Positions 20,664-40,269 of a DNA stretch of 64,000 bases are shown here, piece by piece. The position numbers were made by a program, and so were the translations under genes. The first letter of the stretch is position 1. Each line of letters starts with the position of its first letter. Location of the stretch: assembly GCA_038363925.1 (NCBI GenBank), contig JAQQWL010000016.1, positions 1,116,001 through 1,180,000 of the forward strand, given 5' to 3'. The stretch comes from Apiospora phragmitis (lineage: Eukaryota; Ascomycota; Sordariomycetes; Amphisphaeriales; Apiosporaceae). The notes under the pieces were generated by a model. It made no database searches. It saw nothing but the letters and a program-made list of their open reading frames with translations, and had not been told where the DNA came from.

Positions 20664-23600
20664 TTAGTTTCCCTCCGCTGTATCAGCTCTTTGTTGGACA
20701 CTTCCGGCAGCCCTCGCCGGCGCATAGTTAGCGAATTTATCTCCGATCTTGAATACTCCAAATCTTTGCTTCGTCTCCGCCTTGGTGGGGGATGGTCCGT
20801 AGCCACCGCCGCCCGGCGTCATCACGATGATTCTATCACCAGCGTTCATCATCGTCGTCGCCTTACCCCCCAGACTGATGGTCCTGGTGGTTCCGTCAGT
20901 CGGGTCCTTGCGAATCCACAAGTTCAACCCGCGCTTGCCCTCCTCGCCACCCGCCATTCCGTAGGGTGCGATAACTCTTCTCTCTGAAAGGATTGAAACT
21001 TGGAGCGGCATGCGGAACTCAATGTCTCGCACACAGCCGTCACCACCACGATTCAGACCGTTGCCACCACTACCTTGGCGGATAGAGAATTCAAGCAGTA
21101 AGACAGGATATTTCTTTTCGAAAATCTCGGGATCCGACATTCGGGTGTTTGTGACGTGAGTGTGGACACCACTCTCGCCCTGCCAGTCCGCGCCGGCACC
21201 AGAGCCACCAGCAATGGTCTCGTAGTACCCAAAGCCCTGGACAACCTCCTTAGTATCAGGGTCTGTCCCACCATAGCCGAAGGTAAGGTTGTTGCAGGTG
21301 CCTTGGGATGCAGCACAGGCTTGGAAGGCCTTGAAGACCAGATCCACAATCCTCTGCGATGTCTCAACATTAGATCCGACAGTCGCAGCCTTCAGTGAAG
21401 GGGAGAGAATGCTGTTTTGGGGAGCTTAAGTTTGATAGGGGCAAGACAGCCTTGGTTCAAAGGCATATCCGTTGCGACCATTGATCGCAGGCAGTACTAT
21501 AGCAACACAGGAGGTAAGCCACGCTATCTTTGGAGCAGGTCGTGAGAGTGCAGGTTTCTTACCATGATTCCAGACAACATAACTGCGGGTGGGCAATTGA
21601 GGTTACCAAACTGCTCATGGCCTGTCCCCTCAAAGTCAAAAACGGCATCGCCAGTTTCAGGATCAATGCGAATCTCGAGTGACAAAGGCGTTCCATCGTC
21701 GAGATAGTCGGTCGCCTTTAGATCCTGCCCTTGGAAGCGCCTGCTGAAGGACTTAAGCAGATCTCGGACAGCTTGTGCAGCATTATTCTGGATAGCCTCC
21801 ATATAGTACTCGACGACCGGCCAAGTATATTCCTTGACCAAGGCGTTAATAAGCTGGATACCTCGATTATTAGATGCAATAGCCGCCTTGAGATCAGCGA
21901 TGTTGTCCTTTAGCGTTCTCGTCCCGCTGCAGCCTGGATACGAAGCCGGGATATCAACCAAAATCCCATGGAGGCCTTTATCATCAAATATGCCTTCCTT
22001 CACGATTTTGAAAGTCTCGACGGCAACACCTTCCTGCCACAGCTCGGTGGAGTGGGGAGGCATGGATCCAGGCTGAATACCACCAATATCAGCATGATGC
22101 CCGCGGTTAGCCACGAAAAAGAGGATCTTCGTTGGGTCGTCTTCGCTGAAGACTGGCGTTGTGACGGTAAGATCAGGCAAATGTGTGCCTCCGGCGCAAG
22201 GATGGTTGCTGAGCAAAACATCACCAGGCTTGAGTTCTCCGTGGCCGTACAGCTTTGCCTGATAGGCTACCGCATAGCTCATAGAGCCAAGGTGGCCGGG
22301 GATATGCGGTGCGTTAGCGACCAAACCACCAGTTGCCGAGAAGATAGCGCAAGAAAAGTCTAGACGCTCCTTGATGTTAACGGAGATAGACGTCTTTTGC
22401 ATGGTCTGTCCCATTTGCTCGGCAACGCTCATGAACCGATGACCGAAGATGGAAAGCTGTACTGGATCCACAGCATCAGTAGCAATCTTAGCTGCCTCGA
22501 CGTCTAAGATTTCCAAGATAAGGTGCTCCGGCAGAATGGTGGCAGCACTCGATGAATCGAGCACGATCGTCTGCGTCTTGTCTACCACAATTGCAGGTCC
22601 ACGGATCGTACTGCCAATTGGGAGATCGTTGAGATAGAGCAGCGCAGTATCTGTCCATCCGTGGTTTTCGTAGTAAACTTTAGTGAATGCTCGTGGCTCA
22701 CTGGGAGTGGCCGACAGAGTCGTCTGGACCCTGCGTAGTTCCTCGAATGGATTGGTGAGCTTGAGATTGGCGCCCTGGCCAATGGTGCGAACTCGAACAT
22801 CATCGACAATGGTACTGCGAGGCTGTGTGAAGCCAAACTCTTGGTGGTGGCGAGCAATGAATGCTTCCTCGAATTCAGCAATATGCCCAGGATGAGGAAT
22901 CATCAAAGAGGTGTTACTGCCTTGGTATCGCATGTTGAGGAACAACTCATGTCTGATCTCGCTTGTAGAGAACCCTTGAGACTCTAGTGACTGAACACCC
23001 TGAGCACTGAGCCTATCGAAGCGGTTCTGTAGCTGGTCGTGTACGTTGCTTGAGAAGTTGACTGTTTCTGGTTCTTGATTCTCGACAACAACATCTGCAA
23101 GCGCCATTCCATACGCTGATAGAATACTGGAGTAGCGTGGAATAATAACCCGCCTGATACCGAGATCTCGAGCCACAGCCACAGCATGCTGACCTCCAGC
23201 ACCGCCGAAGCAGCCGAGATTATGAGCTCCTGCTTCGAAGCCGCGGCCTTCGCTCAAGGTTCGAATGGGCCTGGTCATCGTAGCGTTAGCCACGTTCAGG
23301 AAACCCATGGCCACCTCCTCGGCGGTGAATTTGGTTTCTCCAGTCTTCTCCTTGTTGATCTCTGCAGCCAAGGCATCAAACTTTTCCTGGACGACTTTCT
23401 TATCCAGAGGTCGAGGGAATAGGTCGGAACGATTCTGCCAAGGAAGAAATTGGCGTCTGTAACTGTAAGAGGACCACCTCTGCCGTAACAAGCAGGACCG
23501 GGGTTCGCACCCGCACTGCCTGGACCAACCTTGAAGAGGCCATTCTCCCACGTCAATATTGAACCACCTCCAGCCGCAACGGTATTGATATCCAATTGTG

Positions 23601-24678
23601 GTGTTTGGATTGTTACCTCGGCGATGGTGCTTTCGAAAATATGTTCCAGGAAACCAGCATAGCGGGCCACATCCGTACTGGTGCCGCCCATATCAAAGCC
23701 TAGGACCGGAGTACCATCATCATCATGGTAGCAAGTCTTGGACAGGCCGATGACACCACCCGCGGGGCCGCTCAGGACGCCACGCAAGCCAGTGAAATTT
23801 GTGTATGCCGTGAGACCACCATCTGACTGATTCAAGAATAGCTTCTTCGCGTTATGGTCCTGTAGCTGACCCTCGAAGCCCTTGCGGAAACTCTCGAGAT
23901 AAGCATCGGTAACTGGTGATAAATACGCGTCTGCCACGGCCGACTGACTGCGCGGCACAATCTTGGCCATCTTTTGGAGATCTGCTGACGCAGATACCCG
24001 AAAACCAAGCTCTCGGGCGACTCTTGCTACGCCTTGCTCATGATCCTGGAAAGTGTAGGAGTGCATCATGGCAACAGCCACGCTGCGGAAGCCACGCTCC
24101 CATAGAGCTGAGAGATCCTTGCGGACCTGGTCGTAGTCTGGCGCTCGAATGATGCGGACAACCTCCCCTGACAAGCCCAATACCAAGGCCGGGTCGCTGC
24201 TAATGTCACAAACGGGCCTTGGATTGGGGTTCTCGGCAAACTCTTCGATCGTGACACGCTCATCGACCTCCACCACAGTTTCATACAGCTTGGTCATTCG
24301 ACGCACTGATAAGTCAAAAATGTGAGGACGGGCCTGGTTGCCGATTTCCAGAATGTCGCGGAATCCCTTGGTGATGACCAAAGCCGAAGGCTCTCCCTTT
24401 CGTTCCAGTAGAGCATTGGTCGCCACAGTGGTGCCCATGCGGATGGACTCAACGGTATCTAGGTTCAGAGGCGTGCCTCTGGGGATCGGCTTCCCACCGG
24501 AAAACTCCAAGACCTGACGGATACATTCTGTTGGTGCGTCAGGGTACTCTTCCGGGCTTTGCGAGAGAACTTTGATCACCAGTGTCTGGTTGGACTCGGG
24601 AATCCATGCCCAAGCATCTGTGAAGGTACCACCACGGTCAATGGCAATGCGGACCCCTGACGGCTTAGCTTTCGTCAT
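20664..24678 (-). CDS. OXP1: 5-oxoprolinase / hydantoinase A-B fusion (two frameshifts)
   Basis: ATP-dependent cyclic-amide hydrolase of the 5-oxoprolinase/N-methylhydantoinase family; the classical reaction opens 5-oxoproline to glutamate. The N-terminal HyuA half (from 24678) carries the ATPase start [29 protein letters not shown] and [10 protein letters not shown]. The HyuB half includes [13 protein letters not shown] and [13 protein letters not shown], and the end carries [10 protein letters not shown] 66 bp intron at 21562-21497 joins LSGIM to [12 protein letters not shown]. One base is missing near 23425, where GRIVP should run into DLFPRPLDK, and one in the GGGG at 21419-21422. With both restored it is 1316 aa, normal for the eukaryotic fusion. 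Clustering with a D-carbamoylase makes a hydantoin-like substrate possible. It diverges from the permease gene. Confidence 0.92.
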
Positions 24679-25624
24679 GTTTGATTGGTGGCGAGCTTTT
24701 CCTGAAAAAGTATAGATATCTCGATGAGAGGATGGAGGAGCTCGTGAGATGGCCCAAAGGAGAAGAAGACGGTCATTTAGGGGTCCATCACAATATGCCT
24801 ATCGTCTCTTGAACGAACACTGTACTAATGACTTGCTCTGAACCGATATCCTATGGACCGGCGTGGAACCGATGACCAATCAGTTCTTTGGACCAGATGC
24901 CGATCGTGGACTTATTGCCGACCAGAGGGGGGGTGAGTCGAAAAGCAATAGACGTAATCGCAATCCCGCCCCCGCATCCTATCTCAGACGGCTGATTCAC
25001 ACGTCGTATTTCACACACGAGAATCCAATTCCTAGATGCCTGTATAGTCTCAAGGGCGCCCGTTATCTCATAATGTCGATCAGTCGTAACACGCTAGATA
25101 AGAGGCCAACCGTATCGACCTATGACCATCGAGCCGACAGACGGGCCGGGCCGGACTCTCGTGGGCCGATCTAAATGGCCAGATAAGATAAGCCGATCTT
25201 TCTATAAAACCGTTAAGTTAATGATAACACAAACGGCAAGAAACCCACAGCGGCACCAAGTAACAGCTGTCCCGATATTGTTATCACAGTCATGTCTATC
25301 TTCGTTTTAAACCATCATGAATCCGTGATAAGATACCGTACTATCTACGGGGACACTAAATCAGGCCCACTAAGATTGCCTTACAGTAGCATTAGGTACC
25401 CCACCTTCCCCGGAGCTAGGAGACGCGATATCCACTAGGTCTCGACCACTCTCTTTAGTATACTGGTGCCATTGGATCCACCTCTTATGGACTTTATACT
25501 CGTTGTCTGTCCCTCTCCCTCCCTCCCCTCCTGATTCTCTGCTGAGGTCAAGTCAATTTATTCACGCTTGGAGGAAACCAAAAACGCCAGAGTATTCCTG
25601 GTGCAAACACCTCCCTCCGTCGCC
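24679..25624. promoter_or_regulatory. bidirectional promoter, oxoprolinase / permease
   Basis: A 946 bp head-to-head region. It holds at least six CCGAT pentamers between 24843 and 25276, and a dense group of HGATAA sites between 25063 and 25332 listed separately. Pyrimidine-rich tracts precede the permease start. Co-regulation of both genes by nitrogen status and a cluster regulator is inferred. Confidence 0.6.
25063..25332. promoter_or_regulatory. cluster of GATA-factor (AreA/NIT2-type) sites
   Basis: HGATAA on either strand at 25063 (TTATCT), 25096, 25181 and 25186 (tandem AGATAAGATAAG), 25222, 25281 (TTATCA) and 25326. That makes seven sites in 270 bp, far above the fewer than one expected by chance. 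HGATAR is the established site of the fungal nitrogen regulators AreA/NIT2. Function here is inferred. Confidence 0.65.
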
Positions 25625-27415
25625 ATGGTTACCCCAGCCGAATCTCCTAAAAAGGAGAGCACCGTTGTTCCCAAGACAACTGAGAACAATGGTTCTGTCG
25701 GTGAGTCATACGACATCGACCCGGTGAAAGAGCGAAAGATGATGAGGAAGTTCGATGTACGTTCAGTCATTCAGCCTGGTTTCCGAGCCGAGCTATTCAA
25801 AAACGCTGGTTATGCTCTGGCTAACCATTGTTGCAACTCTAGCTGTATGCCATCGTGCCAATGGGTGTCTTGTATATGATGTCCAACCTGGATCGAAGCA
25901 ACTTGGGAAACGCCAACATCTCTGGTATGCCTGAAGAAATTGGCCTCACCGGCAATCAATTCGGTATTGCTACTACGCTTCTGTATGCTTCAACACCCAG
26001 TCTTCTTTCATTGCTAGGTGCCGGTTAAACGGTTGGCTAACAGCTTGGGATGTGCAGTTTTGCTACGTACGTTCCGTTCGAGGGACCGGTCGCCGTCTTG
26101 CTGAAGATCGTTGGGCCCAAGCTCCTGATATCAATCTGCGCTTTCTGCTGGGGAGCGACTGGTCTCGGAATGTGTATGTCCAATGTTGATCGAGCCCCCT
26201 GAACTACAAAGTATCAGTCTCGAATACTAACCTCTGAGATTCGATATAGCCTTTGTCCAAAACCACTTTGGTCTTTACGCCTGCCGACTTTTGATCGGCT
26301 TCTTTGAGGCCGGGCTTATCCCTTGCATCAACGTCTACATCGGAGAGGTATACAAAAGATCTGAACGAGGCCAGAGATCTTCCTTCATCTTCGCTTTCAG
26401 CGCTTTCTCCAGTGCATTTGGTGGTCTATTGGCCTACGGACTGACCCAGATTCGTACAGCTAACTACTCAGGATGGAGGTGGCTCTTTGCTGTTGAAGGT
26501 GCCATGACCATCTTGGTCGTGCCCTGCTTCTGGTTCATCTTCCCCACCACGCCGACTGAAGCTTGGTTCCTTACCCAAGAAGAGAAGCAGATGATGCAGA
26601 TCCGATACGCTTCCGATCCCTCATGGGGGTATGAAGAGAAATTCTCTTGGAGCGAGTGCCTCAAGGCATTCGTTGATCCAAAGTGGTACGCGTTCTTTGC
26701 CTATCAATTCGCCATCAATATTAGCCTATACGGCCTGACGACCTTCATGCCTGCTATTATTCGTGGATTAGGATACACGTCTGTTCATGCTAATTTGATG
26801 ACTGTCCCGATCTTCTTCACCGCCTTGGTCTTTTTCCTAGTGATTGCCTGGATCTCAGATCGAACGGGGCTTCGAGGTCCGTTCCTCATCGTTGGTCTTG
26901 TATGCTTGGTTATTGGATACTCTATTTTGATCACAGTCGAAAATCTCAAGGTCAAGTTCTTCGCATGCTTCAGTAAGTTTTCCGGACTTGTTAAAACACG
27001 CTCCCTATCTAGGAGACCGGACGCTTAGGGAATATCTACTGACCTAAAACTAGTCGCGGCCTTGGGTATCTACCCAACCACCGGTCTCTCCATTATGTGG
27101 TTGCAGGATAACGTGTCGAAGCACTACAAACGAGCAACTATGGTGGGCTTCACCCTCGCTCTTGGTAACACGGCAGGCGTTGCGGTGGGGCAGATCTTCA
27201 CTGCAGAGAGTGCGCCAACGTACCTCCCCGGCCTTCGCATTGCTTTGGGCCTGGCTTGCTTCGCCTTGGTTGATGTTTGCTGCCTTATGGCTGCCTTCAA
27301 ATGGGTCAACAAGAAGCGAGCGGCTAGGCTGTTGGCAGCTGAGCAGGCTGGAGACCCGATTGAGCCAGATGATGCTTTGGGAGACTACGGTCCTCATTTC
27401 CGCTATACTTGCTAA
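25625..27415 (+). CDS. Dal5/allantoate-type MFS permease
   Basis: Major facilitator transporter of the anion:cation symporter (Dal5, allantoate/ureidosuccinate) family, in the plasma membrane. Exons are 25625-25756, 25843-25982, 26058-26173, 26250-26972 and 27054-27415; all introns are GT-AG, the frame is intact and the protein has 490 aa. Family marks are MSNLDRSNLGNANISGM in TM1, LLIGFFEAGLIPC in TM4, and SGWRWLFAVEGAMT. Dal5-type carriers move ureido and other organic acids, which suits the neighbouring carbamoylase and oxoprolinase. The actual substrate is unknown. It is divergent from the oxoprolinase gene and its promoter is rich in GATA sites. Confidence 0.93.
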
Positions 27416-28068
27416 GGTATGCGGAATTGTGTACTGTATTTAGGGAGAATGAGACATTTCCTGCTTCGACCTGAATGGGAATTGGGTTCGTGCCATATCT
27501 GAAGCTACTTTGTAGGCCGATCCTAAAGCCTTGTCCCTGTGTAAATTATAGAGTGATGGTCTTCACAAACTCTTGATGGTATCAGGCCAAAATCATGCCA
27601 GGCCCAAAGCAATGTGAAGGCTGGGGAGGTACGTTGGCGCACTCTCTCTGGTGAGGAGCTGCGTGTCAATAATCGCCTGCAATGTGCTGCATCCGCGACG
27701 CTGCATAACCAGGCTTCGGGATCAACGATCAGCAAAGATAGGGCTCGCCCGTCAGACATTCGAATTTGTCGGCGTACGACAAGAGCCCGGCCGGCTATCA
27801 GCTCTCCAGGCCTACATTGTCGGCTCGTTCAGTGGTGCGAGCATGCATGGTCGGCTGGGCTCGAAAAAGCCGAGGAGGCGGTATCGGTCACATCGCAAAC
27901 ACTAATGCCTGTTTGCACAAAGCCTGGAGCAGACTGTAAGAAGTCAAATGAGCTCTCGCTCGTAAGAAGTTGATTTCCAAGTCGCAAACTTAACAGCTTT
28001 CAGAATTTCATGCATTTCTGTCCATCCCGATCCAAACTTTGAGAGCGATATCGACCATTTTGTTAAAC
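27416..28068. other. intergenic region holding a transporter remnant
   Basis: Space between the permease and the M20 gene. It contains the inverted remnant at 27588-27690 described separately, plus CCGAT on the plus strand at 27517 and on the minus strand at 27883. The rest shows nothing recognisable. Confidence 0.5.
27588..27690 (-). pseudogene. inverted fragment of a Dal5-type permease gene
   Basis: Read on the minus strand, this stretch matches 27155-27255 of the adjacent permease gene. The best part translates as QLLTRESAPTYLPSLHIALG against QIFTAESAPTYLPGLRIALG in the intact gene, then hits a stop. Upstream similarity continues with one indel. Differences include several CG-to-CA type changes. 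It is the remnant of an inverted duplicate or of a related permease gene, about 350 bp from the intact copy. Confidence 0.7.
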
Positions 28069-29167
28069 ATGGCTGACACTCCTGTTGTTACACTGCTCAA
28101 ACAGTTGATGGAAATCCCATCCATCAGTGAAGAAGAAGAAGAGATCGGTTTTTTCCTGGAGAAGTACCTTAAGGATCGAGGCTACATGGTTGAACTTATC
28201 CCTATTGCGCCAGGGTCAACTCGCCGTAATGTGTACGCTTACATGGGGAACAACCGCAAGTCTCGGACCATGCTTACCTCGCACATGGACACAGTCCCAC
28301 CCCATATTCCATTGAGTATCAAAGGGGATATTATCTACTGTCGCGGCGCTTGTGATGATAAAGGTTCCCTGGCTGCGCAAATCGTTGCTCTCGAGGAACT
28401 GAGAGCTGAGAACGCAGTCAAGGATGGCGACGTTTCATTGCTCTTTGTCGTGGGCGAGGGAAAGGGCGGGCCGGGAATGCTCGCCGCAAACGACATGGGC
28501 CTGACATGGGAAGCTGTCATTTTCGGCGAGCCAACAGAAGGGACCATGGCTACAGGCCACAAGGGTCACTATGTCTTTGAGCTCTTTGCATCAGGAATCT
28601 CGTGTCATTCCGGATACCCTCACGGCGGAACGAGTGCTACCGAGAAGCTGATCTCAGTATTGGCTGAGCTCAAGTCCCTGGACCTGCCGACATCTGAGAT
28701 TCTTGGGCCTACGACTTATCACTGCGGCAAGCTTGAAGGCGGCGGAGCGTACAACGTTATTGCCAAAGATGCCTATGCGCTGTGCGGTATTCGCGTCGCT
28801 GCCAATCTTGAGGAGATCGAGAAGAAGGTCAATGACGTGGTCAGCAAGTATCCAGAGGTTGAGTTGAAGAAGTCCTTTGCCTACCCTGAGACGATGCTCG
28901 ACTACGAATTTGAAGGTGAGAATTCCATTCTTTGCGGTTCCCCAAGGATAGCGCTAACGAACGGTCTGTGCCATTCACTAGGCATCCCGCATAAGCCAGT
29001 GTCGTTCGGAACCGACATTCAACGGTTGACAGGAGCGCACAAGAAGTTTTCTCTACGGACCTGGGTCGATTCTACATGCTCATGGAGTAGACGAGCAAGT
29101 TGCTATCCCCAACCTGATCAAGTGCGTCGCTATCTATAAACGTCTTACGTTAGCAGCCCTTCAATAG
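28069..29167 (+). CDS. M20 family metallo-amidohydrolase (one frameshift)
   Basis: ArgE/DapE/ACY1-type zinc peptidase or N-acyl-amino-acid hydrolase. Start MADTPVVTLLKQL. Metal-binding motifs are TSHMDTVPP and RGACDDKGS; the dimerisation-domain motif reads HSGYPHGGTSA. The usual Glu-Glu pair reads Glu130-Gly131 (VVGEGKGG), so one acidic residue is missing. An extra T in TTTT at 29047-29050 shifts the frame after GAHKKF. In the other frame the family end continues as LYGPGSILHAHGVDE, carrying the last metal-ligand His, and stops at 29165-29167. With correction it is 365 aa. N-acyl, N-carbamoyl or dipeptide substrates are all possible; its place in the cluster suggests amide release. Confidence 0.85.
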
Positions 29168-29493
29168 GCCCCGGGGAGATGGAAATATGATTATGTAGAT
29201 ACAGACGGCAAACAATGGCAAAAGCCGCTTCTGACAAGTCTCCACTGGAAACCGGGCAACGGCATCAGGTCCGCCGCCCGTTGTTGATCATAGTCGACTT
29301 GGAAGCTGGAACTCTGATCGGTCGGGTTCTCTAGACGTTAGCCGAAACGGATTACATAAGTCATTTCCAGTCCAAGTTTATAATTGCCAGGGGTTTTTAC
29401 CATCCTTTCGAATTCTTCGTTCCGTGTGCTGGTAGCGTCTCGTATCTAAAAGTTTCCATTGGAGGAATCAAGCCCCAGATCTCAGAAGGAAAC
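29168..29493. other. M20-aminotransferase intergenic region
   Basis: Holds the aminotransferase promoter. One CCGAT (reverse) lies at 29317. No gene was recognised. Confidence 0.45.
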
Positions 29494-30847
29494 ATGCCGT
29501 CCGACCTGAAAGACATTACTGTCTTAGAGCGGGACGAGGCTTTCGCCATCACCGCCGACTTTACAGCTGATAAAGACCCGAGAAAAGTGAGCTTGGGCGC
29601 TGGGGTCTATCGCGATGAGAACTCCAAGCCATGGATCCTCCCAAGTGTTCAGACTGTATGGCAACATTTCTCACCTTCACTATCTTTCCTTTTCCCCTCT
29701 TGTTTTACGTTTCTGACTCCAAAGCCAGGCCAAAGATATTCTTCACGCCAACACCTCCCTTTACCATGAGTATCTGCCGATAGGCGGATATGAGCCCTAT
29801 CTGAATGTCGCAAGGGAACTGATACTGGGGAAAGAGTACGATATCTCACTCAGTAACACTGTTTCCGTCCAAACCATCTCGGGCACAGGAGCCAACCATC
29901 TCGGTGCCTTATTCCTGGCGCAGCAATTGCGACCTAGGAACGTTTTCATTTCCGACCCAACATGGGGTAATCATCACCTGATCTGGCAGACGGCTGCACC
30001 GGCCGTGACGCGAAGAACATATCCTTACTATAAACCCTCCACGAGGTCGCTGGACTTCGAGGGTATGGTATCGACGTTGGAAAAGGAGGCTGAGGAGGGT
30101 GATGTGGTCATCCTGCATGCTTGCGCCCACAATCCTACGGGCATTGATCCGACGAGAGACCAGTGGAACGAACTTGCGCATATCTTTCGGCGCAAGAGGC
30201 TGTTTGCCTTCTTTGATTCGGCTTACCAAGGATTTGCTACCGGCGATGTGGACGCCGATGCGTGGGCTGTCCGGCTCTTCCACAAGACCCTTTTTATCGC
30301 CAACTGTCCTTCCTCCTCCTCCAGTGGTAGCCCTGAACCAGCCGGCATGTGTATTGCCCAGTCATTCGCCAAGAACTTTGGGCTTTACGGCGAAAGAGTC
30401 GGCGCGTTTCATCTCATTCTTCCTGGACAAGTCTCCCCTTCAGGAGCGCAAAGTCAGCTGTACAGACTGATTAGAGCGGAAATATCCAACTGTCCTCTCT
30501 TTGGCTGCCGCATCGTCTACACTATACTTTCCAATCCGGAGCTCACCACGTTGTGGAAACAGGATCTTCAGACCATGTCCGACCGTATTAAGACCGTCAG
30601 AGGGAGGCTGCGGGAACAGATTGAACTGCAATCCGGTGTTGGGGATTGGAGTCATCTCGAGTCACAGATCGGCATGTTCAGCTTCACGGGTCTAACGGAG
30701 CAACACGTCAAAAGACTCAGAGGCACCCATCATGTCTATTTGATGCAAAACGGGCGGGCTAGTTTGAGCGGCGTGAACGAGTGCAACGTCAAATATGTGG
30801 CAGACGCATTCAGCGAGGTCATTCAGCATTTGGGGAACATATCGTAG
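29494..30847 (+). CDS. class I aspartate/aromatic aminotransferase
   Basis: PLP-dependent aminotransferase of the aspartate aminotransferase fold that exchanges an amino group between an amino acid and a 2-oxo acid. Exons are 29494-29655 and 29729-30847 and the frame is intact, giving 426 aa. Motifs: VSLGAGVYRDENSKPW near the N-terminus, SGTGANHLGALFLA, LHACAHNPTGIDPT, DSAYQGFATGD, and the PLP lysine Lys269 in SFAKNFGLYGERVG. No clear targeting peptide is seen. In this cluster it could convert the 2-oxo acids made by the D-amino-acid oxidase back to L-amino acids, or run the reverse reaction. Confidence 0.92.
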
Positions 30848-31045
30848 GGGCAGCAGTTAGCAGTAAATGCCCACGAGCCAAAGCAGATTAAATTGACTCT
30901 TAGCTCCTGAGACCCGCTACCTTGACCACAGCCCCCGTCGCAAAAGATATTCGTTCTATTGCTGTGTATCCATCCAGAGAGCCTACAATGTGAAATAGGG
31001 CTCTTCTGCCGGCAGGATACGAGCAGTGAAGCATCTTAGTAGCGG

Positions 31046-33686
31046 CTAGAGTATGGATCCAATATGCTCCGGGCTTATATGGTGACCCTCCTGACTGCCA
31101 TTGGTAGGGTCAAGGAAAGCTTGCAAGAGTGGATTGTCTAGAGGATCAGCAGTGAGACCGACAGCTTCCTCCTCATAACCACCGTAAGGGTTTGGAGGGA
31201 TCATGAATTTGCTCCAGTCATACTCGTCAAGAACGGCTGCGCTCAATGGATCCATCGAGCTCATATTGTTTGGAAGCCTTCCTTGATCTTCATCGCCATC
31301 TCCATCACTGGGATTTGGCGTTTCTTCTTGCATCACTGTGGCCCCGCGTGAAAAGTCGATTGACGCTCAATTGGATGTTCACGAGCCGAGAAAAGTACTC
31401 TCCCGCTATGACGTTCCCGTTATCGCGCATCATCATGAGGAGTTGGAACGCTGTCTGCACGGCATCTGAATCGCTCGCGTTAGGGGAGGAGATGGCTGCT
31501 GCGATCAGCACAAGCGTGGAGGCGAACAAGTGATGGGCATCAAAGTAGCCTCAAGTAGCGAGAGAGTTCTCAACAAACAGCTGCGAGATGATGGCGTTGG
31601 ATGTCCGGGCAGCGGCGATGCAGGAAGCGGCCAACGACTTTGCGGTATCCGAGATCGTTGGTGTGCTGCTGCCGCTGCTACCATGGGGTCCTGCACCAGT
31701 GGCATCCCCGGCGAACGGATTTCGGAGTTTAAAGACGTACAGAAGTATAGGGCGCGTAGTCAAAGTGATGCACTGATTGAAGTGCAGCTGCAAAGAGGCA
31801 ACCGATCGAGGGACGCTGCCAGCAGGGTCCCACCTAAGCCGGGCTGGGACATGACTATCCCATTTCCTTAGTTTCTGTAATATCGAGCGGACGTTATGAA
31901 CAAATGCGTGCCCGTTAGTTTTGACCGAGGGCACGTAGATGTCTTTCATGATGTATCCTGTGATCTGGGCAAGGTTGATGTACGCAATAAGGTGGTCCGT
32001 AGAACCTCCAAGGACTTTAGCTCTTCAGGAGACAGAGAATCAGTGGAAGGCATCGCGACATCGACGTCTGAGTCTTGAATTGCCACCGGCTGTCCAAGTT
32101 TCGAGCACGTGGAACGGTCAAATATGTAAACAGTCCACCATAATCGACATCGGTGCTCCCGGTCCAATGCTGAGAGAGTGGAGGACTCTGGTACACAACG
32201 ATGGAGGCCAAGGGAAGTGCTTGAGCGCAACGCCATACCGCTGTATATGTGTGCGGACCTGACACGGCCGAGGGCGTTTGAGTAGAAAGACTGTAGAAAG
32301 GGATTAATCGCAAGACTACTGGGAGCCTGCATAACCACGGAGAGGACTTTAACTTACAAACAGAAGCAGTGTTTCGATCTGGTCGATGGAAGGCTCTTCA
32401 AATAAATCTTGCAATAGCGTTACAGCCGTGAAAAAGTAGTCACTTCCGGCCGCCACTGATGGTCCCGATTTCTTCGCAGATGGCAGCGACGTCGAATACA
32501 TCTCGCCCAAAGCCAGGATGGCGAAAAACTTGCAGATCCAAATGCTGTCATTCTCCCGCTCCGGCCCCTGCGCCGATGCATACATCTTATCCAATCGCTG
32601 TAGGAAATCCCGCTCCATGAACAGGTGATAGTCCTGGCCAATGAAACGAACAGCGACCCGCATCAGCAGGGTCGCCCGAATGCGATCTGGAAATTTGCAA
32701 CTGGCCACGCTGCTAATTTGTCGGGAGAAAGTCGGGTGGCGCACATACTGACTGTTTGAAGGGAACGGTGTGGTCGTAGCCTGCGAATCGAGACATTGTA
32801 GTAGGCGATCGCCGAATGCTGAGCAGGTGGATTCTCCTATGAATTGTTGCTGCAAGTCATAGGTCGAGGTAAATATCTGGCCTGACTCGTGTATCGGATT
32901 GCTGATGTTCGTATCGACATTAGACATGTGGACATCTAAGCCAGATGATGGACGAGAAGGAGGAATAACAGGAGCTGCAGCTACAGCAGCTTCAGCTTCA
33001 GTCTCAAGCTGTCGACCTGCGGCCTGCTCTGTAAGCTTCACCGAGTGCTCATCTGTCCTGGCATTGACGTCGAAGTTGACATCGATGCATATCTCATCAT
33101 GATCCGTGGCTATTTCGTCTCCACGCTGACGGGGTCTCTGTAACTGCCGGAGATAGCTATGTAGACACACAATTGTCAATCACGCACCATTCTGGAGAAT
33201 CGAATTCATAGGTCAACCACTGTTTTACCTCTCTGATACGGTGACCCGCCTATCCCGTGGCGGGTACTGGCAAGACGCGCCTTTCTGGGCTTTTAAACAC
33301 CGTTGGCACGGCGTACCTCCAGAGCATTTGACTTTGAGAGAATGGCAGCGTTGACATCTAGCAAAACTATTATCAGTATGGCCTTAAAATTCGTAATTCG
33401 AACATGGAATTGCAGAGGATTGGCCAGCTAGCTTTCACGAATCAATCTCGCGACATCACTAGGCGCGCCGAAGGGAGACCACATACGCGACATAGGACCG
33501 CTTCTTACCACCCAGTCGACTGTTCACCCTGTCCCCTGACGCTACTGACGTTTCTGGGGCCGGCGGCTCGGCCGTGGTAAAACGCGGGATGTTGGTGCAG
33601 ATCGGGAGATGAGACCGCAATTCATCTGTGGCTTCAAAAGTCGGGGAGGCGGAAGAACAATGATCAGCTGGGGGTGAAGGGTGCAA
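31046..33686 (-). CDS. Zn2Cys6 transcription factor (frameshifts and one in-frame stop)
   Basis: Fungal zinc-cluster regulator with a fungal-specific TF domain. Exons are about 33686-33487, 33357-33229, 33156-32358 and 32290-31046. Intron 1 splits the DNA-binding domain: KKRSYVA joins CQRCHSLKVKCSGGTPCQRC, giving the full Cys spacing C-X2-C-X6-C-X5-C-X2-C-X8-C. The middle domain includes ALGEMYSTS and HRCRLWWTVYIFDR. No in-frame ATG is seen in exon 1; 33686 marks an in-frame TTG and the real start is unresolved. One base is missing near 31997, one is extra in CCCC at 31342-31345, and a TGA at 31551-31553 interrupts SLAT and GYFDAHH. Corrected length is about 790 aa. It lies at the cluster centre, divergent from the dehydrogenase gene, and is the likely pathway regulator. 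Confidence 0.82.
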
Positions 33687-34157
33687 CTTCGTTTTGGAAA
33701 AGGTGAGACAGCCGATGCCGCTTAGCCGATGCCGATGCCGATGCCGATACCGATGTCGACGCTGAGACGAGGTTCCAACCGAATACCGATAGCGCTGATA
33801 GGAGTCGAGCCTATCTCAGTCTTTCCCCGGACCTCGCTGATATTGACCGGCATTGGCCAATCGGTTCGCGTGAGTCCATGAGTCCCACAAGATACGCTCG
33901 CCTAAGGATAGCGACCCGTACCAGCCGGGCCAGTCGGCCGATACCGTGTTGACCTAAGCCGCTGCGCGTCTCACACAATCCTGGGTTCTCCTACCATCCG
34001 ACTGAAAGTGGAAGTGAGACTGATAATGGCAAAGAGGCGCGCGTGATTGCTGCTTTAATTCTCATCGCCTCTTGAATAGTGATGCTTCCTGGGTTGCAAG
34101 CCTTCAACCTCGTTAGCTGATAATAAGCAAACTCACTTTAGCACCATCTGGATAGTC
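33687..34157. promoter_or_regulatory. bidirectional promoter, regulator / dehydrogenase
   Basis: Head-to-head region of 471 bp with at least nine CCGAT pentamers (six within 33711-33754, then 33786, 33938 and the reverse form at 33860). HGATAR sites lie at 33796, 34021 and 34118. It may also contain an unrecognised first exon of the regulator. A regulatory role is inferred. Confidence 0.55.
33725..33754 (+). repeat. GCCGAT hexanucleotide tandem array
   Basis: Four exact GCCGAT units at 33725-33748 followed by ACCGAT; another GCCGAT lies at 33711. The unit contains the CCGAT pentamer that recurs in the other promoters of the cluster. Confidence 0.85.
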
Positions 34158-35193
34158 ATGGCTTCCAAACCAGATATTCTCCTGATCGAATCCACGGTTC
34201 AGGGCTGTGACGAGGCGCGGTGGAAGGCACTAGCAGGAGAGACTCAACATCCTCCGCTACGACTGCGAATCAACGGAGGTCTTCAAGCAACGTATGCAAC
34301 CCGGGGGTGGCTATGACAAGATTGTTGCCATTGTCCGCAATGGCTGGTTGAAAGCCGGTCCGCTCGCTTATCAGGTGCCATTCGCCTCAGACGTCGTTCC
34401 CTATTACCCTGATACGCTCAAGCTTATCTGCTGCAGTGGTCATGGATACGATACAGCAGACATTGGCGCTATCACGGCCAAAGGCATATGGTACTGCAAC
34501 ACGCCAAATGCATGCACTGAGGCCGTCACAAACACGACTCTTTCTCTGGTGCTGGATACATTTCGGCTCCTCACTTATGCTCAGTGGTGCGCCAGGTTTG
34601 ATTGGTTCAAGAGTCGGGACCTAGGAACGCAGGCTGTCGACCCAACCCATAAGTCCTTGGGCATCGTAGGCCTGGGTGACATCGGTTTGGCCGTGGCTCT
34701 GAAGTGCGAGGCAGCTTTTGGGATGAAGATTCACTACCAAGGTCCGCGACGGAAGCCGGAAGCAGAGAAGCAGTTCAAGCAACCGGCTACTTACCACTCT
34801 ACTGTGGACGAAATGATCCCACACGTGGACTGCATCGTCATCGCTGCACCCTACACGCCTTCCACACACCACCTCCTCTCTTCGAAACAGTTCGCACTAG
34901 CTAAAAAGGATGGCCTACGAGTCGTGAACATTGCGCGGGGCAAGATGATTGATGAGGACGCTTTGTTAGAAGCTCTGGATAGCGGCAAGGTCATCAGTGT
35001 CGGGCTGGATGTCCACGCAAACGAACCAGGAATCAACCCAAAGTTCAAGGATAACTGGAAAGTGACTGTTCTGCCGCACATTGGGGTTTGTTCGAGAAGC
35101 AGCTGGGAAAACTTTGACAGGATAATTCTGGACAATGTCGAAGCCTTCTTCAGCACGGGTAACCCACTTACGCCAGTTAACAACATTGAATAA
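34158..35193 (+). CDS. D-isomer-specific 2-hydroxyacid dehydrogenase (one frameshift)
   Basis: NAD(P)-dependent oxidoreductase that interconverts 2-oxo acids and D-2-hydroxy acids. Start MASKPDILLIESTVQG. The Rossmann motif is LGIVGLGDIGLAV. The catalytic triad is visible as Arg in NIARGKMIDEDA, Glu in GLDVHANEP and His in LPHIG. The C-terminal CSRSSWENFDR resembles fungal D-mandelate-dehydrogenase-like enzymes. An extra base at about 34238-34246 (GGAGAGACTC) shifts the frame; LNILRYDCE should follow AGE. With correction it is 344 aa. It could reduce 2-oxo acids produced by the downstream D-amino-acid oxidase. It diverges from the regulator gene. Confidence 0.9.
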
Positions 35194-35592
35194 ACCATAA
35201 AGGCGACTTGTTTATTTGGGAGTATAATAAAATCGCATAAGCCCTAATTAAAGTGTTAAACTATATATCGTTTTCTGCATTGCTGAAATCTGTATTATGT
35301 AGCATGCCATGTATCGTATGATGTGTAAGAGTTGCCTTCGTGAGAGATGAAATGACCATTGCTGGCTGCCGAAGACCTTCCAACGTGCTTTATCGGGTGA
35401 CCGATAGTGAAGAGCAATGCTCGGTTCACTGCCCATCCCGCCGATGTTGGGCCCCCTGACGCCGCGCACGCACTTCACTGCTAACTAGACTTTATGTACT
35501 TACCCATGTTCAGTCTTTTGTTGCTAGAATCATGTTCGAGTATATTCCTGCTGAACTGCATACCACGAAACCAGGCTTAGAAGCACGATAAT
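35194..35592. other. dehydrogenase-oxidase intergenic region
   Basis: Promoter of the D-amino-acid oxidase gene. CCGAT pentamers lie at 35401 and 35441, with the reverse form at 35392, and CGATAA at 35586 overlaps the leader. No gene was recognised. Confidence 0.5.
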
Positions 35593-37027
35593 ATGGGTAA
35601 GCTCTTTTAACCGTTCTTTTGCCTTTTGTGATCGCGGGCTAAATATCAACGCTCCCACAGCGTACTTTGTGGTGATCGGCGCTGGTGTCATTGGCCTCGT
35701 CCAAGCTCTCGAGCTGCGTGCACGATTTCCCGATGCCAAAATCATTATCGCCGGTAAGTATCTTCCCGGGGACTCGGCGCCTGACTACACATCTGCCTGG
35801 GGCGGTGCAAACTGGTTTCCGGCCGCGAGGGACAATGGGCCGCAAGAGGATTGGGAGGCTATCACGTACCGAAAGTTCAAGGACCTAAGCGCAAAACGCC
35901 CAGAGTGCGGCATCAGACCCATGAACATTCGATGGCACTACGAGCAGCCAATCGAAGAAGTTGGCATCAAGACGCCCGCGACGGGCAAGCTGTGGTTCAG
36001 GGAGCTTGTTGGTGGATTAACCGAGATTCCAAAAGAGGAGCTCCCTGGCGGTTGTGCATTTGGCTTTGAGATGGCTAGCTTCGTCATTGATGTGCAGAAG
36101 TATCTGCCATGGTATGTGTATATGAAGCCACAAAAACGGCGAGTATCGTGCTGACGCAAAGCAAAGGTTGCAAACTGAGTGTACCAGGCTCGGCATCGAA
36201 GTTCACCGAAGGGTTTTCAGCCACATCCGGGAGGCCTTCCGAGCATATCCTAACACCACGGCCATCTTCAATTGCACAGGGCTTGGAGCTTTGACACTGG
36301 GCGGAGTTGAAGACAAGAAGATATTTCCTGCCAGGGTATGTGTTATGATGAACCCTTGGAAAGTGATAAGGTCGCTTTTTATAATTCTTTTTCCTCCTTT
36401 CTCCAAATTCACCCTCCAATCTACCCCTGGTGATCATTCTTAGTAATTTACATACTCACGAATTCCTCTGGTCAGGGCCAAATCGTATTGGTAGAAGGTC
36501 CCGAGAAGCCGATCCGTAAAATGTACTTCCGCGCCCCTCATCGTGACGGTGAAGCCACGTACATCTTCCCGAGGGGTGAGCGCGGTGGCATCATCCTTGG
36601 AGGTTGCCGACAAAAGGGCCGATGGGATGGTGAGCCGGAGATGGACTTTGCGGCACTTATCATGCAGCGTTGCTGTGCCCTTGTCCCTGAGCTTGGCCGG
36701 CCGGAGGACCTGAAGGTGATTAAGCATGGACTTGGCTTGCGACGTACGTATACACACAATCACCGATGCCTAAAGCCGGTTACAAGTACCTACTAATACA
36801 ATGTATCATAGCTGGGAGAGAGGGAGGGTCTCGAGTCGAGGCCGAGACGATCGAGGGGCATCTAGTGATTCACAATTACGGGGCCGGAGGAACTGGTTTT
36901 CAAGCTGGATGGCAAGTGATAGAACCTTCCGCTATTTTGCGAGCCAGAAGACATGACTGACCTTTCTTACAGGGGATTGGCCCAATATGCTGCGAATCTG
37001 GTCTCTCATCGCTCAGCCCATCTGTGA
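35593..37027 (+). CDS. D-amino-acid oxidase, peroxisomal
   Basis: FAD enzyme that oxidises D-amino acids to 2-oxo acids, ammonia and hydrogen peroxide. Exons are 35593-35596, 35661-36111, 36167-36335, 36476-36743, 36812-36911 and 36973-37027, giving 348 aa with an intact frame. The first exon has only four coding bases. The last intron begins with GCAAGT rather than GT, and only this donor keeps the frame through AGWGLAQYAANLV. The FAD motif VIGAGVIGL starts the protein. The family motifs AWGGANWFP, FNCTGLGA and GLRPGREGG follow. The C-terminus SAHL ends in AHL, a PTS1-like peroxisomal signal. D-aspartate oxidase is the alternative, but the neighbouring D-carbamoylase supports a D-amino-acid role. 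Confidence 0.94.
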
Positions 37028-37412
37028 AGTCAATGCCAGAGGCTTCGGTAATATTGGTATAGTAGTGCCTTTTCAGATTTTAGATCAACCCAGGCAGGCA
37101 GATTATCTGCTACTGAGTCAATAGATCTCTGTATTGGGTTGGCCGAGTGTAGCAAAAGATAATCAGGCGGCGAACAGTATCTAGGCGCGGGATTGGCGGC
37201 AAATAGGCGGGGTCCGGTCATCGGCGTCGGCTCAAAAGATGCCGGGCCGCCCTTGGAGATATCTCGTGAAGCTCGTCCGATTGCGTGCGTTTCATAGAGG
37301 ACGCGCCGCTGGAAGATACAGAGAAGGGATTTAAATTTCATAGTATTCCCCTCAACTGCTTGAGAATCCGTCAAATCCGTTTCCAAAACAAGACCAGAAG
37401 TAGAAAGAAATC
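37028..37412. other. oxidase-carbamoylase intergenic region
   Basis: Promoter of the carbamoylase gene. It holds AGATAA sites at 37103 (reverse) and 37157, and CCGAT at 37277 with the reverse form at 37220. No gene was recognised. Confidence 0.5.
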
Positions 37413-38581
37413 ATGAGCACCAACCCAGGCCAACGGCTACTCACAGTGGCCGCCGCCCAGCTGGGCCCGACTCCGAGCCTGGATACTCCCCGCTCAGGAG
37501 TTCTGGATCGAATGATCAGACTATGTGAGGATGCAGCTAGCAAAAATGTCAGACTTCTTGTGTTTCCAGAGCTTGCCTTTACGACCTTCTTCCCTGGTTT
37601 CATTATCGAGAAGCAGGAAGACGTGGACAATTTCTTCGAGGCAGCTTCTCCGGAGGATCCCTACGCTATCATTCACTCGTCTAACGGCAAACCTCTCTTT
37701 GACAAGGCGGCGGAGCTCCGAATCGACATCTCCATCGGGTACGGTGAGCGATGGGCGGGAGAGGACGGGAAAATCACGTACTACAATACGGCAATTTATT
37801 ACTCGGCCAAGCAACGGAAGGGCATCGCCAAGTACAGGAAGATCCATCTGCCTGGTCGCTATGAGCCTGACACCCGCCCGGGGGTCACGCAGCAATTGGA
37901 GAAGAGGTACTTCGCGGTGGGCAATCTTGGATTTGAGGCTTTCCGTGTCCCCGATCTTATTCACGGGGCCCTGAAGTCGAAGGATACGGTGTCAGGAGAG
38001 GACACGCAGGGGAAGGGCGATCCAATCGTCGGTATGCTCATCTGCAACGATAGGCGTTGGGCAGAGGGATGGAGGTCATATGGTCTTCAAGGCATTGAGC
38101 TTTTGCTGGTAAGTGCCCCCAAAGAGGGGAAAGCCATGTTCATTGCAGCAGAGGTGGAGTGACCGACTCACTGACTCACCTCGGAAAACATGTAGGAGGG
38201 CTATAACACCACTGCGTTCGCACCACAGTACCCAGGCTCGGATGAGTGGCAAGAACATGAAGCCCTCTTCCATCACCATCTTTCCAACCAATCTGGGAGC
38301 TACACAAATGCCTGCTTCAGTATACACGCGGGTAAGGCCGGGAAAGAAGACCACGGCTCCCTTATCGCTGGTAGCAGCATCGTTGACCCGAATGGCCATA
38401 TTATTGCCGAGTCAAAGACGAAAAATGACGAGCTGGTCTACGCTACTATTGATCTTGCCGAGTGCCGGAAGGGCAAGAGAGGGTCTTTGCATTCGACAAG
38501 CATAGACGGGTTGAACATTATGGGAGGTTGGTGAACCAGGTGGGCGTCCAGGAGCCGGCTCTACTAGATTCAGCATTGTAA
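37413..38581 (+). CDS. N-carbamoyl-D-amino-acid hydrolase (one frameshift)
   Basis: Nitrilase-superfamily carbamoylase that splits N-carbamoyl-D-amino acids into D-amino acid, CO2 and ammonia. Exons are 37413-38108 and 38196-38581; the intron joins IELLL to EGYNTTAFAPQYPG. The Glu-Lys-Cys triad is Glu53 in VFPELAFTTFFP, Lys143 in KYRKIHLPG and Cys211 in ICNDRRW. LEKRYFAVGNLGF and HHHLSNQSGSYTNA follow the bacterial D-carbamoylase pattern closely, more so than other nitrilases. One base is missing at about 38474-38480 (GGCAAGAGAGGG). The other frame continues as RVFAFDKHRRVEHYG and stops at 38579. With correction it is 360 aa. It directly follows the D-amino-acid oxidase, which would consume its product. 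Confidence 0.93.
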
Positions 38582-38830
38582 CTCAAGTGTTTGATGTTCC
38601 TAACTACCATTCTTCGCCTAGGTGGGGTGCATGCCTGTCTGAGATCTATAGCCTTGTTATTCGCCTTTCGGTGACGATTCTTATGATGCCCTTCATTATG
38701 TAGTCAGGGAGAATTGTATTCAAGTATATTGTATCCTTAACTTGGTACCTCAGACCGCCCACGTCTTGCTGCTATCAATCTTACGCTCTGGGTTATGGGT
38801 ATGGACTTGATGCAACACAGCCCGTATCCC

Positions 38831-40269
38831 TCATGGGTAATCAAGTGCAGCGACTCTGTTGGGGTTATTCGGAATCAAGAGCGGCAGCGGATTATTCCAC
38901 CTCGTGAATAGTCTTCCTTCCCAGACTTCCTCTACCGGCAACATCTCGCGAGACAAGCGCACTGCTACCTTCTCGTTCTCGGCCCATACCCTACGTCCGG
39001 ATCAGTACAAGTGGTTCGTTATGATCACCACCTTTAAGCTTCCAACGGGTTCACGTTACCTGAGAAGATTCGCTCCTATAAGCTTCTTTATCTGCTCATC
39101 CGTTGCGCCACGCTTCATGACCGCCGCGATGAGTTTAGGGTAATCAGCCACGGAGCTGATCCCGTTGGCAAGGGTTACAGTACCATCGAAGTCCCCGCCA
39201 ATCCCGACATGATCCCATCCGGCCACGGCTACCACGTGCATGATATGATCGACCACCCTCTCGATATCGGCGGAATCTGGGTCCTCTGCATTCAGGAATC
39301 TCTTCACAAACATGACCATCAGTACACCGCCGTTCTGCTTCAAGCGAGTAAGAACATCATCGGGGGCGTTGCGGTATGTCTTGGCCAGCTCGAAGCAGGT
39401 GCTATGGCTGAAGATGACAGGTGATTGCGTCGTGTCTAATACCTCATGCATCGTTTTATGGGAGGTGTGCGAAAGATCGACCATCATCCCCTAGGCGGTT
39501 CATTTCACGGATCCCAGCGGCGCCGAACTCACTCAGTCCCATATCTTGGCCTCCTGCCGTGATGGTAGATGCCGCCGTCGCAAACGGATTGTCGCAGTTA
39601 TGCGTCAAGGTGACATAACGAACCCCGAGATCAAAGGGCTGCCTAATCACGGCAATAGATGAGCCAGCCTGATGAAGTCCTTCGGCTCCGAGCATGGAGG
39701 CAACCTTGCCCGATCGGAATGCCGAAGAGACACATGCTGATGTGTCACAGAACTCCAGTTCTTCAATCTCCTTGATGAAGCGCCGTGTCACATCCACTTG
39801 TTCTAGTGTATCACGGACGCTGTGTGTTGGATGGTCTGCATTTTCGATATTGGGGCATTCCACGAAAACGGACCAGAATTGGCCCCCGACCTTGCCTTGC
39901 TTTAGGCGCTCAAGGTCCGTGTGGCTCGCAAGTGCTGTGCGATGTTAGTTAAAATAAGAGGGATGGCCGTACGCTTGCGTCCGGAAGGGATACCAGGAAC
40001 TTACCGTGTCGGAAATCGAATGAGCTATCGTATAGCTTATTCTGTAACTCGATGCGTAGTAAATATGGTAGATCATTATGCCCATCAATCAGTGGCGTCG
40101 TGCGCAAGATGTTGTCTGTTCTCGCCACATAGTCGGTTTGGGAAATGGGCTGGAGTACTTCACTTCCCAAATAGTGATATCCTGCGATGCCTGCTCCAAA
40201 GCCCATTGCAAGCAAAAGAACCCATAATGCAGTTTGAGACTTTGGTGATCTCGCTGCCTTGGCAAGCAT
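38831..40269 (-). CDS. membrane dipeptidase, M19 family (one frameshift)
   Basis: Zinc dipeptidase of the renal (membrane) dipeptidase family; some members cleave dipeptides with a D-residue. Exons are 40269-40005, 39934-39060 and 38990-38831 with introns of 70 and 69 bp. A single hydrophobic segment (ALWVLLLAMGFGAGIAGY) near the N-terminus suggests a type II membrane anchor. Metal ligands are seen in DGHNDLPYL, LGAEGLHQ, LTHNCDNPFA and FSHSTC, and GGDFDG follows. An extra base in CCCC at 39488-39491 breaks the frame between REMNRLG and MMVDLSHTS. With correction it is 432 aa. It converges with the carbamoylase gene and could supply amino acids to the cluster. Confidence 0.92.

What the first reader, a model, noticed from the sequence alone, without database searches (positions are those of the whole stretch)
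20664..40269. Candidate fungal gene cluster for hydantoin / N-carbamoyl-D-amino-acid catabolism
Nine adjacent genes fit one nitrogen-scavenging route: oxoprolinase/hydantoinase fusion, Dal5-type ureido-acid permease, M20 amidohydrolase, aminotransferase, Zn2Cys6 regulator, D-2-hydroxyacid dehydrogenase, D-amino-acid oxidase, N-carbamoyl-D-amino-acid hydrolase and membrane dipeptidase. D-carbamoylase and hydantoinase pairing is known from bacteria (e.g. Agrobacterium). I know of no described fungal cluster joining them to a D-amino-acid oxidase and a dedicated regulator. Housekeeping mitochondrial genes flank both sides, which gives natural borders. The gene identities are seen in sequence; the joint pathway and substrates are inference.
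Basis: partly seen in the sequence, partly recalled or inferred. Interest (0 to 1): 0.88.

Follow-up and report, generated by a model that had tools for sequence, protein, structure and literature searches.

The report
Likely transferred fungal D-amino-acid gene cluster
Nine neighbouring genes in the reed fungus Apiospora phragmitis look like a nitrogen-scavenging route for ring-shaped and D-form amino-acid compounds; at least three of them have linked relatives in other fungi and a history that suggests transfer between fungal classes, but most of the nine carry single-base frame breaks in this assembly and the substrate is unproven.

Summary
The nine gene families are present. The organism is Apiospora phragmitis. 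Carbamoylase, oxidase and oxoprolinase were tested against relatives. Pairs of these relatives share a contig on 14 other contigs. In Paecilomyces, oxoprolinase and oxidase are six locus tags apart, as in the window; in Phialemonium, oxidase and carbamoylase tags are consecutive, but its oxoprolinase lies on another contig. The three gene trees broadly agree and conflict with the species tree; the window oxidase is 91% identical to one from another class. So: a real, patchy, probably horizontally transferred catabolic cluster.

Corrections. Six of nine genes have a single-base frame change here. Other genes of this assembly have them too, so I favour consensus error over decay; unproven. The oxidase aligns with three substrate-side arginines of human D-aspartate oxidase, and the aminotransferase is aspartate-type, which points to acidic D-amino acids (inference; one known fungal D-aspartate oxidase lacks two of these arginines). 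GATA sites are enriched between the genes. Substrate unknown; composition not found in print by ten searches.

The parts
20664..24678 (-). Hydantoinase/5-oxoprolinase fusion (HyuA plus HyuB domains); two frame changes (about 23398-23425 and 21401-21443)
   Evidence: Pfam; tblastn with four guides; nearest Colletotrichum eremochloae 85%, P. nodorum 81%; a relative (P0124) matches PDB 7hk5 N-methylhydantoinase E 1.1e-105
25625..27415 (+). MFS permease, five predicted exons, open throughout; Dal5 subtype not tested
   Evidence: gene model; Pfam MFS_1
28069..29167 (+). M20 ArgE/DapE-type amidohydrolase; frame change near 29040-29055
   Evidence: Pfam; NCBIfam DapE-ArgE 8.4e-39, below its curated cut-off; PDB succinyl-diaminopimelate desuccinylase 1.5e-16; frames
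29494..30847 (+). Aspartate-type aminotransferase, intron about 29656-29728, open
   Evidence: Pfam; PDB 1yaa aspartate aminotransferase 1.4e-110; frames
31050..33380 (-). Zn2Cys6 regulator (boundaries approximate); at least one frame change and one in-frame TGA read by eye
   Evidence: Zn_clus and Fungal_trans in different frames
34158..35193 (+). D-2-hydroxyacid dehydrogenase; frame change near 34230-34245
   Evidence: Pfam; PDB 2w2k D-mandelate dehydrogenase 2.6e-46; frames
35593..37029 (+). D-amino-acid/D-aspartate oxidase-type flavoenzyme, six exons (the last intron GC-AG), open
   Evidence: splicing; 91% to P. nodorum P0241; PDB; residues
37413..38580 (+). N-carbamoyl-D-amino-acid hydrolase-type CN hydrolase, one intron; frame change at 38456-38477
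   Evidence: Pfam; PDB; guides; residues
39050..40269 (-). Membrane dipeptidase (M19); frame change near 39490; membership of the cluster not tested in relatives
   Evidence: Peptidase_M19 28-174 and 173-315 in two frames
24679..25624 (.). Divergent oxoprolinase/permease intergenic stretch with 11 HGATAR (AreA/NIT2-type) sites, 3.8 expected
33345..34158 (.). Divergent regulator/dehydrogenase intergenic stretch: 6 HGATAR (2.3 expected), 9 TCGGC (2.4 expected), with a short GCCGAT tandem at 33725-33748

Best explanation
It is an accessory catabolic gene cluster that A. phragmitis most likely received from another fungus. Proposed route: a permease takes up a cyclic ureide, imide or N-carbamoyl acid; the hydantoinase/oxoprolinase opens the ring with ATP; the D-carbamoylase-type hydrolase removes the carbamoyl group as CO2 and ammonia; the flavin oxidase turns the D-amino acid, probably an acidic one (D-Asp or D-Glu), into the 2-oxo acid, ammonia and H2O2; the aspartate-type aminotransferase and the D-2-hydroxyacid dehydrogenase pass on oxo acids; M20 and M19 hydrolases may free substrates from acyl or dipeptide forms; the Zn2Cys6 protein and a GATA-factor nitrogen control switch it on. 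Shown: families, linkage of three genes, tree conflict, residues, GATA enrichment. Inferred: order of steps, substrates, regulation, working state.
Against: Six of nine genes have frame changes here, and the regulator also an in-frame TGA. No activity, expression or substrate data. Only three of nine genes were tested for linkage; on Mb contigs a shared contig does not mean neighbours. Phialemonium's oxoprolinase is on another contig. Colletotrichum eremochloae and the near Microdochium sequence appear for oxoprolinase only; the Microdochium oxidase listed is a distant one (50%) on another contig. Arg216 and Arg237 are also present in 84 and 88 of 104 more distant rows, so they are not cluster-specific, and the aligned Cryptococcus humicola D-aspartate oxidase has Glu and Met there. 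The 16 relatives have His where the window has Tyr (Tyr223). The carbamoylase has Gln in 120 of 120 rows at a position recalled as His144 of the bacterial enzyme. AU groups are taxonomic but were chosen after seeing the trees.
Confidence: 0.5

Rival explanations
1. 5-Oxoproline (pyroglutamate) or gamma-glutamyl salvage: the large enzyme is a true 5-oxoprolinase giving glutamate, and the carbamoylase and oxidase work on a separate set of D-compounds, co-located for shared regulation.
For: Family names of relatives are mostly 5-oxoprolinase; Pfam does not separate the two activities.
Against: Best PDB match of the P. nodorum relative is N-methylhydantoinase, though sequence does not decide; the linked carbamoylase would be unexplained.
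Confidence: 0.2
2. Detoxification of a plant or microbial lactam or imide, in the manner of the FDB1/FDB2 benzoxazolinone clusters, with nitrogen release a by-product.
For: Horizontally transferred xenobiotic clusters with hydrolases and regulators are known in grass-associated fungi (passages of PMC4726666). Several hosts of near relatives are grasses (recalled, no call).
Against: No typical detox gene (transferase, P450, efflux pump of a drug type) among the nine families; oxoprolinase, hydantoin and D-amino terms do not occur in PMC4726666 or PMC10512309.
Confidence: 0.12
3. The cluster is a decaying relic in A. phragmitis: transferred in, then broken by frame changes.
For: At least seven frame changes over six genes and one in-frame TGA; flank genes such as LeuRS (963-codon open stretch) and Sec8 read well; other frames in this genome are open to 2622 codons.
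Against: Frame changes also occur outside: carboxypeptidase in L013, the C4 carbamoylase whose congeners are 86-92% identical, and C11 and C3 oxoprolinases. The changes are single-base, three genes are open, and coding identity stays at 81-91% to P. nodorum.
Confidence: 0.3
4. Creatinine or N-methylhydantoin route (N-methylhydantoinase, N-carbamoylsarcosine hydrolase, sarcosine oxidase).
For: Best PDB match of the ring-opening enzyme is N-methylhydantoinase.
Confidence: 0.05

Closest known systems
Bacterial hydantoin pathways (hydantoinase plus N-carbamoyl-amino-acid hydrolase, e.g. Agrobacterium and Pseudomonas hyu; recalled)
   Same: A ring-opening hydantoinase-type enzyme beside an N-carbamoyl-D-amino-acid hydrolase-type enzyme with the same catalytic residues.
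   Different: The ring opener here is the ATP-type HyuA/HyuB fusion; an oxidase, aminotransferase and dehydrogenase follow; it is eukaryotic, with a Zn2Cys6 regulator; no hydantoin racemase among the nine gene regions scanned.
Horizontally transferred fungal catabolic clusters (FDB1/FDB2, PMC4726666, passages read)
   Same: Patchy distribution, gene trees against the species tree, transport, hydrolase and regulator genes together.
   Different: Other enzyme families; the four terms searched for (oxoprolinase, hydantoin, D-amino, carbon-nitrogen hydrolase) do not occur in that text.
Transfer of single D-amino-acid enzymes among eukaryotes (PMC5169069, passages read)
   Same: That paper reports DAO-family transfers among fungi and links such transfers to plant-associated fungi.
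   Different: It treats families one by one; I saw no passage on a carbamoylase/oxoprolinase/oxidase cluster.
Human D-aspartate oxidase (PDB 6rkf)
   Same: Aligned Arg216, Arg237 and Arg278 are kept.
   Different: 28% identity over the structural alignment; near relatives have His for Tyr223.

Membership tests
N-carbamoyl-D-amino-acid hydrolase | Glu-Lys-Cys catalytic triad and the Arg pair after the Cys (numbering recalled) | tested here: met
   present in window; Glu 120/120, Lys 119/120, Cys and each Arg 118/120 rows, the rest gaps; alignment
N-carbamoyl-D-amino-acid hydrolase | Histidine recalled as His144 | tested here: not met
   Gln in 120 of 120 rows; so 'works like' is kept, strict membership lowered
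N-carbamoyl-D-amino-acid hydrolase | Hydrolysis of N-carbamoyl-D-amino acids | not testable with these tools
   needs an enzyme assay
Hydantoinase/5-oxoprolinase (HyuA-HyuB fusion) | Hydant_A_N, Hydantoinase_A, Hydant_A_C, Hydantoinase_B in order | tested here: met
   over three frames
Hydantoinase/5-oxoprolinase (HyuA-HyuB fusion) | ATP-dependent opening of hydantoin versus 5-oxoproline | not testable with these tools
   needs an enzyme assay; best match N-methylhydantoinase
D-aspartate oxidase | Arg216, Arg237, Arg278 (human numbering) | tested here: met
   window and 16/16 near relatives; but C. humicola enzyme 9vpf has Glu and Met at the first two, so the trait is not universal
D-aspartate oxidase | Tyr223 | tested here: inconclusive
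   Tyr in window, His in 16/16 near relatives
D-aspartate oxidase | Fold closer to D-aspartate oxidase than to D-amino-acid oxidase | tested here: inconclusive
Horizontally transferred fungal gene cluster | Gene trees conflict with species tree | tested here: met
Horizontally transferred fungal gene cluster | Genes linked in other bearers | tested here: met
   for three of nine genes; the other six not tested apart from the Curvularia joined record
Horizontally transferred fungal gene cluster | Vertical copy or empty site in close kin | tested here: inconclusive
   own genome keeps a separate Apiospora-type carbamoylase on C4; the empty site in congeners could not be fetched
Bacterial hydantoin utilisation pathway | Hydantoin racemase in the locus | tested here: inconclusive
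   none among the nine gene regions scanned; intergenic stretches not scanned
Dal5-type ureido-acid permease | Placement in the DAL5 subfamily | not tested
   only MFS_1 and Sugar_tr matches; abstract and outline of PMC2329640 seen

The most novel reading that the evidence does not exclude
A complete eukaryotic assimilation unit for cyclic ureides and N-carbamoyl derivatives of acidic D-amino acids (ring opener, D-carbamoylase, D-aspartate-type oxidase, aspartate aminotransferase, own regulator) that travels as one block between classes of plant-associated fungi.
Probability: 0.25. Interest if true: 0.75.

Novelty: new variant of a known kind. Interest (0 to 1): 0.55.

Why it matters
D-amino acids and carbamoylated or cyclised amino acids build up in soil and ageing plant matter (recalled). 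A fungal gene block that turns them into oxo acids and ammonia would explain how fungi use this nitrogen and why the genes move between plant-associated fungi. It would also give new eukaryotic carbamoylases and hydantoinases, enzymes used industrially for D-amino acids. The conserved linkage makes the question directly testable in species with uninterrupted genes.

Tried and rejected
Chance juxtaposition of nine metabolic genes: rejected for the three genes tested, because relatives share contigs and tags.

Recent duplication inside the genome: a 4.3 kb DNA query (36000-40300) found only itself; the rest of the cluster was not searched as DNA.

Frame-change baseline from coding signal alone: rejected as a measure. 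In the cluster it found 2 changes at the laxest setting and 0 at the other two, although at least four had been shown by homology. In 18 control loci it counted 20, 13 and 8. A Pfam check of six control regions, picked because open frames abutted, found one frame change in the five with a domain. Against a uniformly poor assembly: 11 of 11 Aldedh matches, 16 of 16 AMP-binding matches and 13 of 15 DAO matches have no stop inside, but those searches score only the best candidates.

Residue column 'Y238' was one residue off, set against the HMMER alignment, replaces it.

Pathway-specific binding site: TCGGC is enriched (28 against 10.5; flanks 26 against 21.5), but the word was picked after looking at the sequence and part of it is a short tandem, so I make no claim. 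Four patterns were tried.

Sequencing method of this genome: not found. PMC10999098 (passages) concerns A. arundinis (Nanopore plus Illumina), not this species.

Literature: ten searches. Passages were read in PMC10999098, PMC8260693, PMC10512263, PMC5737690, PMC5169069, PMC10512309 and PMC4726666; abstract and outline of PMC2329640; the others as listings.
Full report
What is there. The window lies at G000:C16:1116001-1180000 of a 52.67 Mb genome in 19 contigs. The window's carbamoylase is in the protein collection as PG994_014985 of Apiospora phragmitis, on a contig of 1,829,565 bases, the length of C16.

State of the genes. Permease, aminotransferase and oxidase can be read through with ordinary introns. 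The other six cannot. Hydantoinase_A matches positions 1-180 in one frame and 189-290 in another, three residues on; Peptidase_M19 matches 28-174 and 173-315 in two frames that abut. Four protein guides show two frame changes in the oxoprolinase, and two guides one in the carbamoylase. M20, dehydrogenase and regulator changes were read by eye; the regulator also has an in-frame TGA. Similar changes occur outside the cluster: a serine carboxypeptidase in L013, the C4 carbamoylase, the C11 oxoprolinase (three) and the C3 one (two), whereas the C7 oxoprolinase copy is open over 2.9 kb and some frames in this genome run to 2622 codons. I judge consensus error likelier than decay, without proof. 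The sequencing method of this genome is unknown to me.

Linkage in other fungi. I used the longest-contig length listed with each protein as a fingerprint of the contig (120 carbamoylase, 120 oxoprolinase, 119 oxidase rows). Apart from the window's own contig, carbamoylase and oxoprolinase share 6, carbamoylase and oxidase 6, oxoprolinase and oxidase 4; 14 different contigs in all. The species names agree in the 12 that are named. Paecilomyces lecythidis has oxoprolinase at tag 001607 and oxidase at 001613, the same six-gene step as in the window; Phialemonium thermophilum has oxidase 9902 and carbamoylase 9903; Stachybotrys elegans has all three on one contig; a Curvularia kusanoi record joins oxidase and 2-Hacid_dh domains, as if the neighbouring genes had been annotated as one. 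Three contigs link a more distant pair (Aspergillus steynii, A. ellipticus, Geosmithia morbida: carbamoylase 58-59% and oxidase 50-52% identical to the window's), so the carbamoylase-oxidase pairing seems older than this cluster. Against: on Mb contigs sharing is weak evidence; Phialemonium's oxoprolinase lies on another contig; Colletotrichum eremochloae and Microdochium appear near the window only for oxoprolinase; six genes were not tested.

Transfer. The window carbamoylase is nearest to P. nodorum (83%), a Dothideomycete, while listed carbamoylases of other Apiospora are 56-57% identical; A. phragmitis keeps a separate carbamoylase on C4, 86-92% identical over its two longer pieces to an Apiospora one. 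The oxidase is 91% identical to P. nodorum. In the carbamoylase and oxidase trees window and P. nodorum pair at 100/100. In the oxoprolinase tree the window pairs with C. eremochloae, next to P. nodorum and Microdochium (SH-aLRT only, a quick tree). Ilyonectria/Phialemonium group in all three trees, Paecilomyces with S. chartarum in two, Fusarium with Periconia in two; S. elegans moves between trees. AU tests reject the window with other Apiospora (p 1.1e-6) and the Dothideomycetes together (4.8e-31) for carbamoylase, and Dothideomycetes (1.2e-5) and Sordariomycetes together (7.8e-5) for oxidase. Groups are taxonomic but were tested after the trees were seen. Old paralogy with many losses is not fully excluded, but 91% identity between classes makes it hard to hold.

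Chemistry. The carbamoylase keeps Glu, Lys, Cys and the two Arg, but has Gln where I recall His144 of the bacterial enzyme, in all 120 rows. The oxidase carries the aligned Arg216, Arg237 and Arg278 of human D-aspartate oxidase, where Rasamsonia D-amino-acid oxidase has other residues; their roles are from passages of PMC8260693. The same arginines occur in most of the 104 more distant rows, and the Cryptococcus humicola D-aspartate oxidase lacks the first two, so the acidic preference is a lead. A model of the P. nodorum relative (mean pLDDT 90.4) fits D-amino-acid and D-aspartate oxidases equally. The aminotransferase is aspartate-type, the dehydrogenase nearest to D-mandelate dehydrogenase and glyoxylate reductase, the M20 enzyme ArgE/DapE-like. 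NCBIfam gave only matches below its cut-offs for carbamoylase, oxoprolinase, oxidase, M20 and dehydrogenase.

Control. HGATAR sites: 29 in nine cluster intergenic stretches against 16.0 expected, and 23 against 30.1 in seven flank stretches; 11 lie between oxoprolinase and permease. This fits nitrogen control by a GATA factor (inference).

Verdict. A real gene cluster of a known general kind with a composition I could not find in ten literature searches; probably transferred; the pathway and substrate are inferred; the working state in this strain is open.

Noticed in passing
L013:3564-6619 (G000:C5:800001-810000): Serine carboxypeptidase whose Pfam profile continues in another frame (9-293, then 290-415): a frame change outside the cluster.
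   Followed up: partly
G000:C4:573593-574712 (L036): A second carbamoylase of the vertical Apiospora type, also with a frame change.
   Followed up: partly
G000:C7:1564962-1566569, C11:8526291-8527965, C3:276949-278983, C11:4610059-4611139: Further Hydantoinase_B loci in the same genome; C7 is open, C11:8526k and C3 have frame changes without intron room.
   Followed up: partly
window 35593-37029: The window oxidase has Tyr where 16 of 16 near relatives have His (Tyr223 of human D-aspartate oxidase).
   Followed up: no
window 33725-33748: Short tandem of GCCGAT-like hexamers in the divergent regulator/dehydrogenase intergenic stretch.
   Followed up: no
G000:C15:1106570-1123347: Several AMP-binding domains in long open frames (1102 to 2622 codons), possibly peptide-synthetase-like genes.
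   Followed up: no
P0255 (Curvularia kusanoi): Database protein that joins DAO and 2-Hacid_dh domains, probably two neighbouring genes annotated as one.
   Followed up: no
Tree: Fusarium and Periconia (with Exserohilum or Curvularia) group together for carbamoylase and oxidase, which looks like a second transfer between classes.
   Followed up: partly
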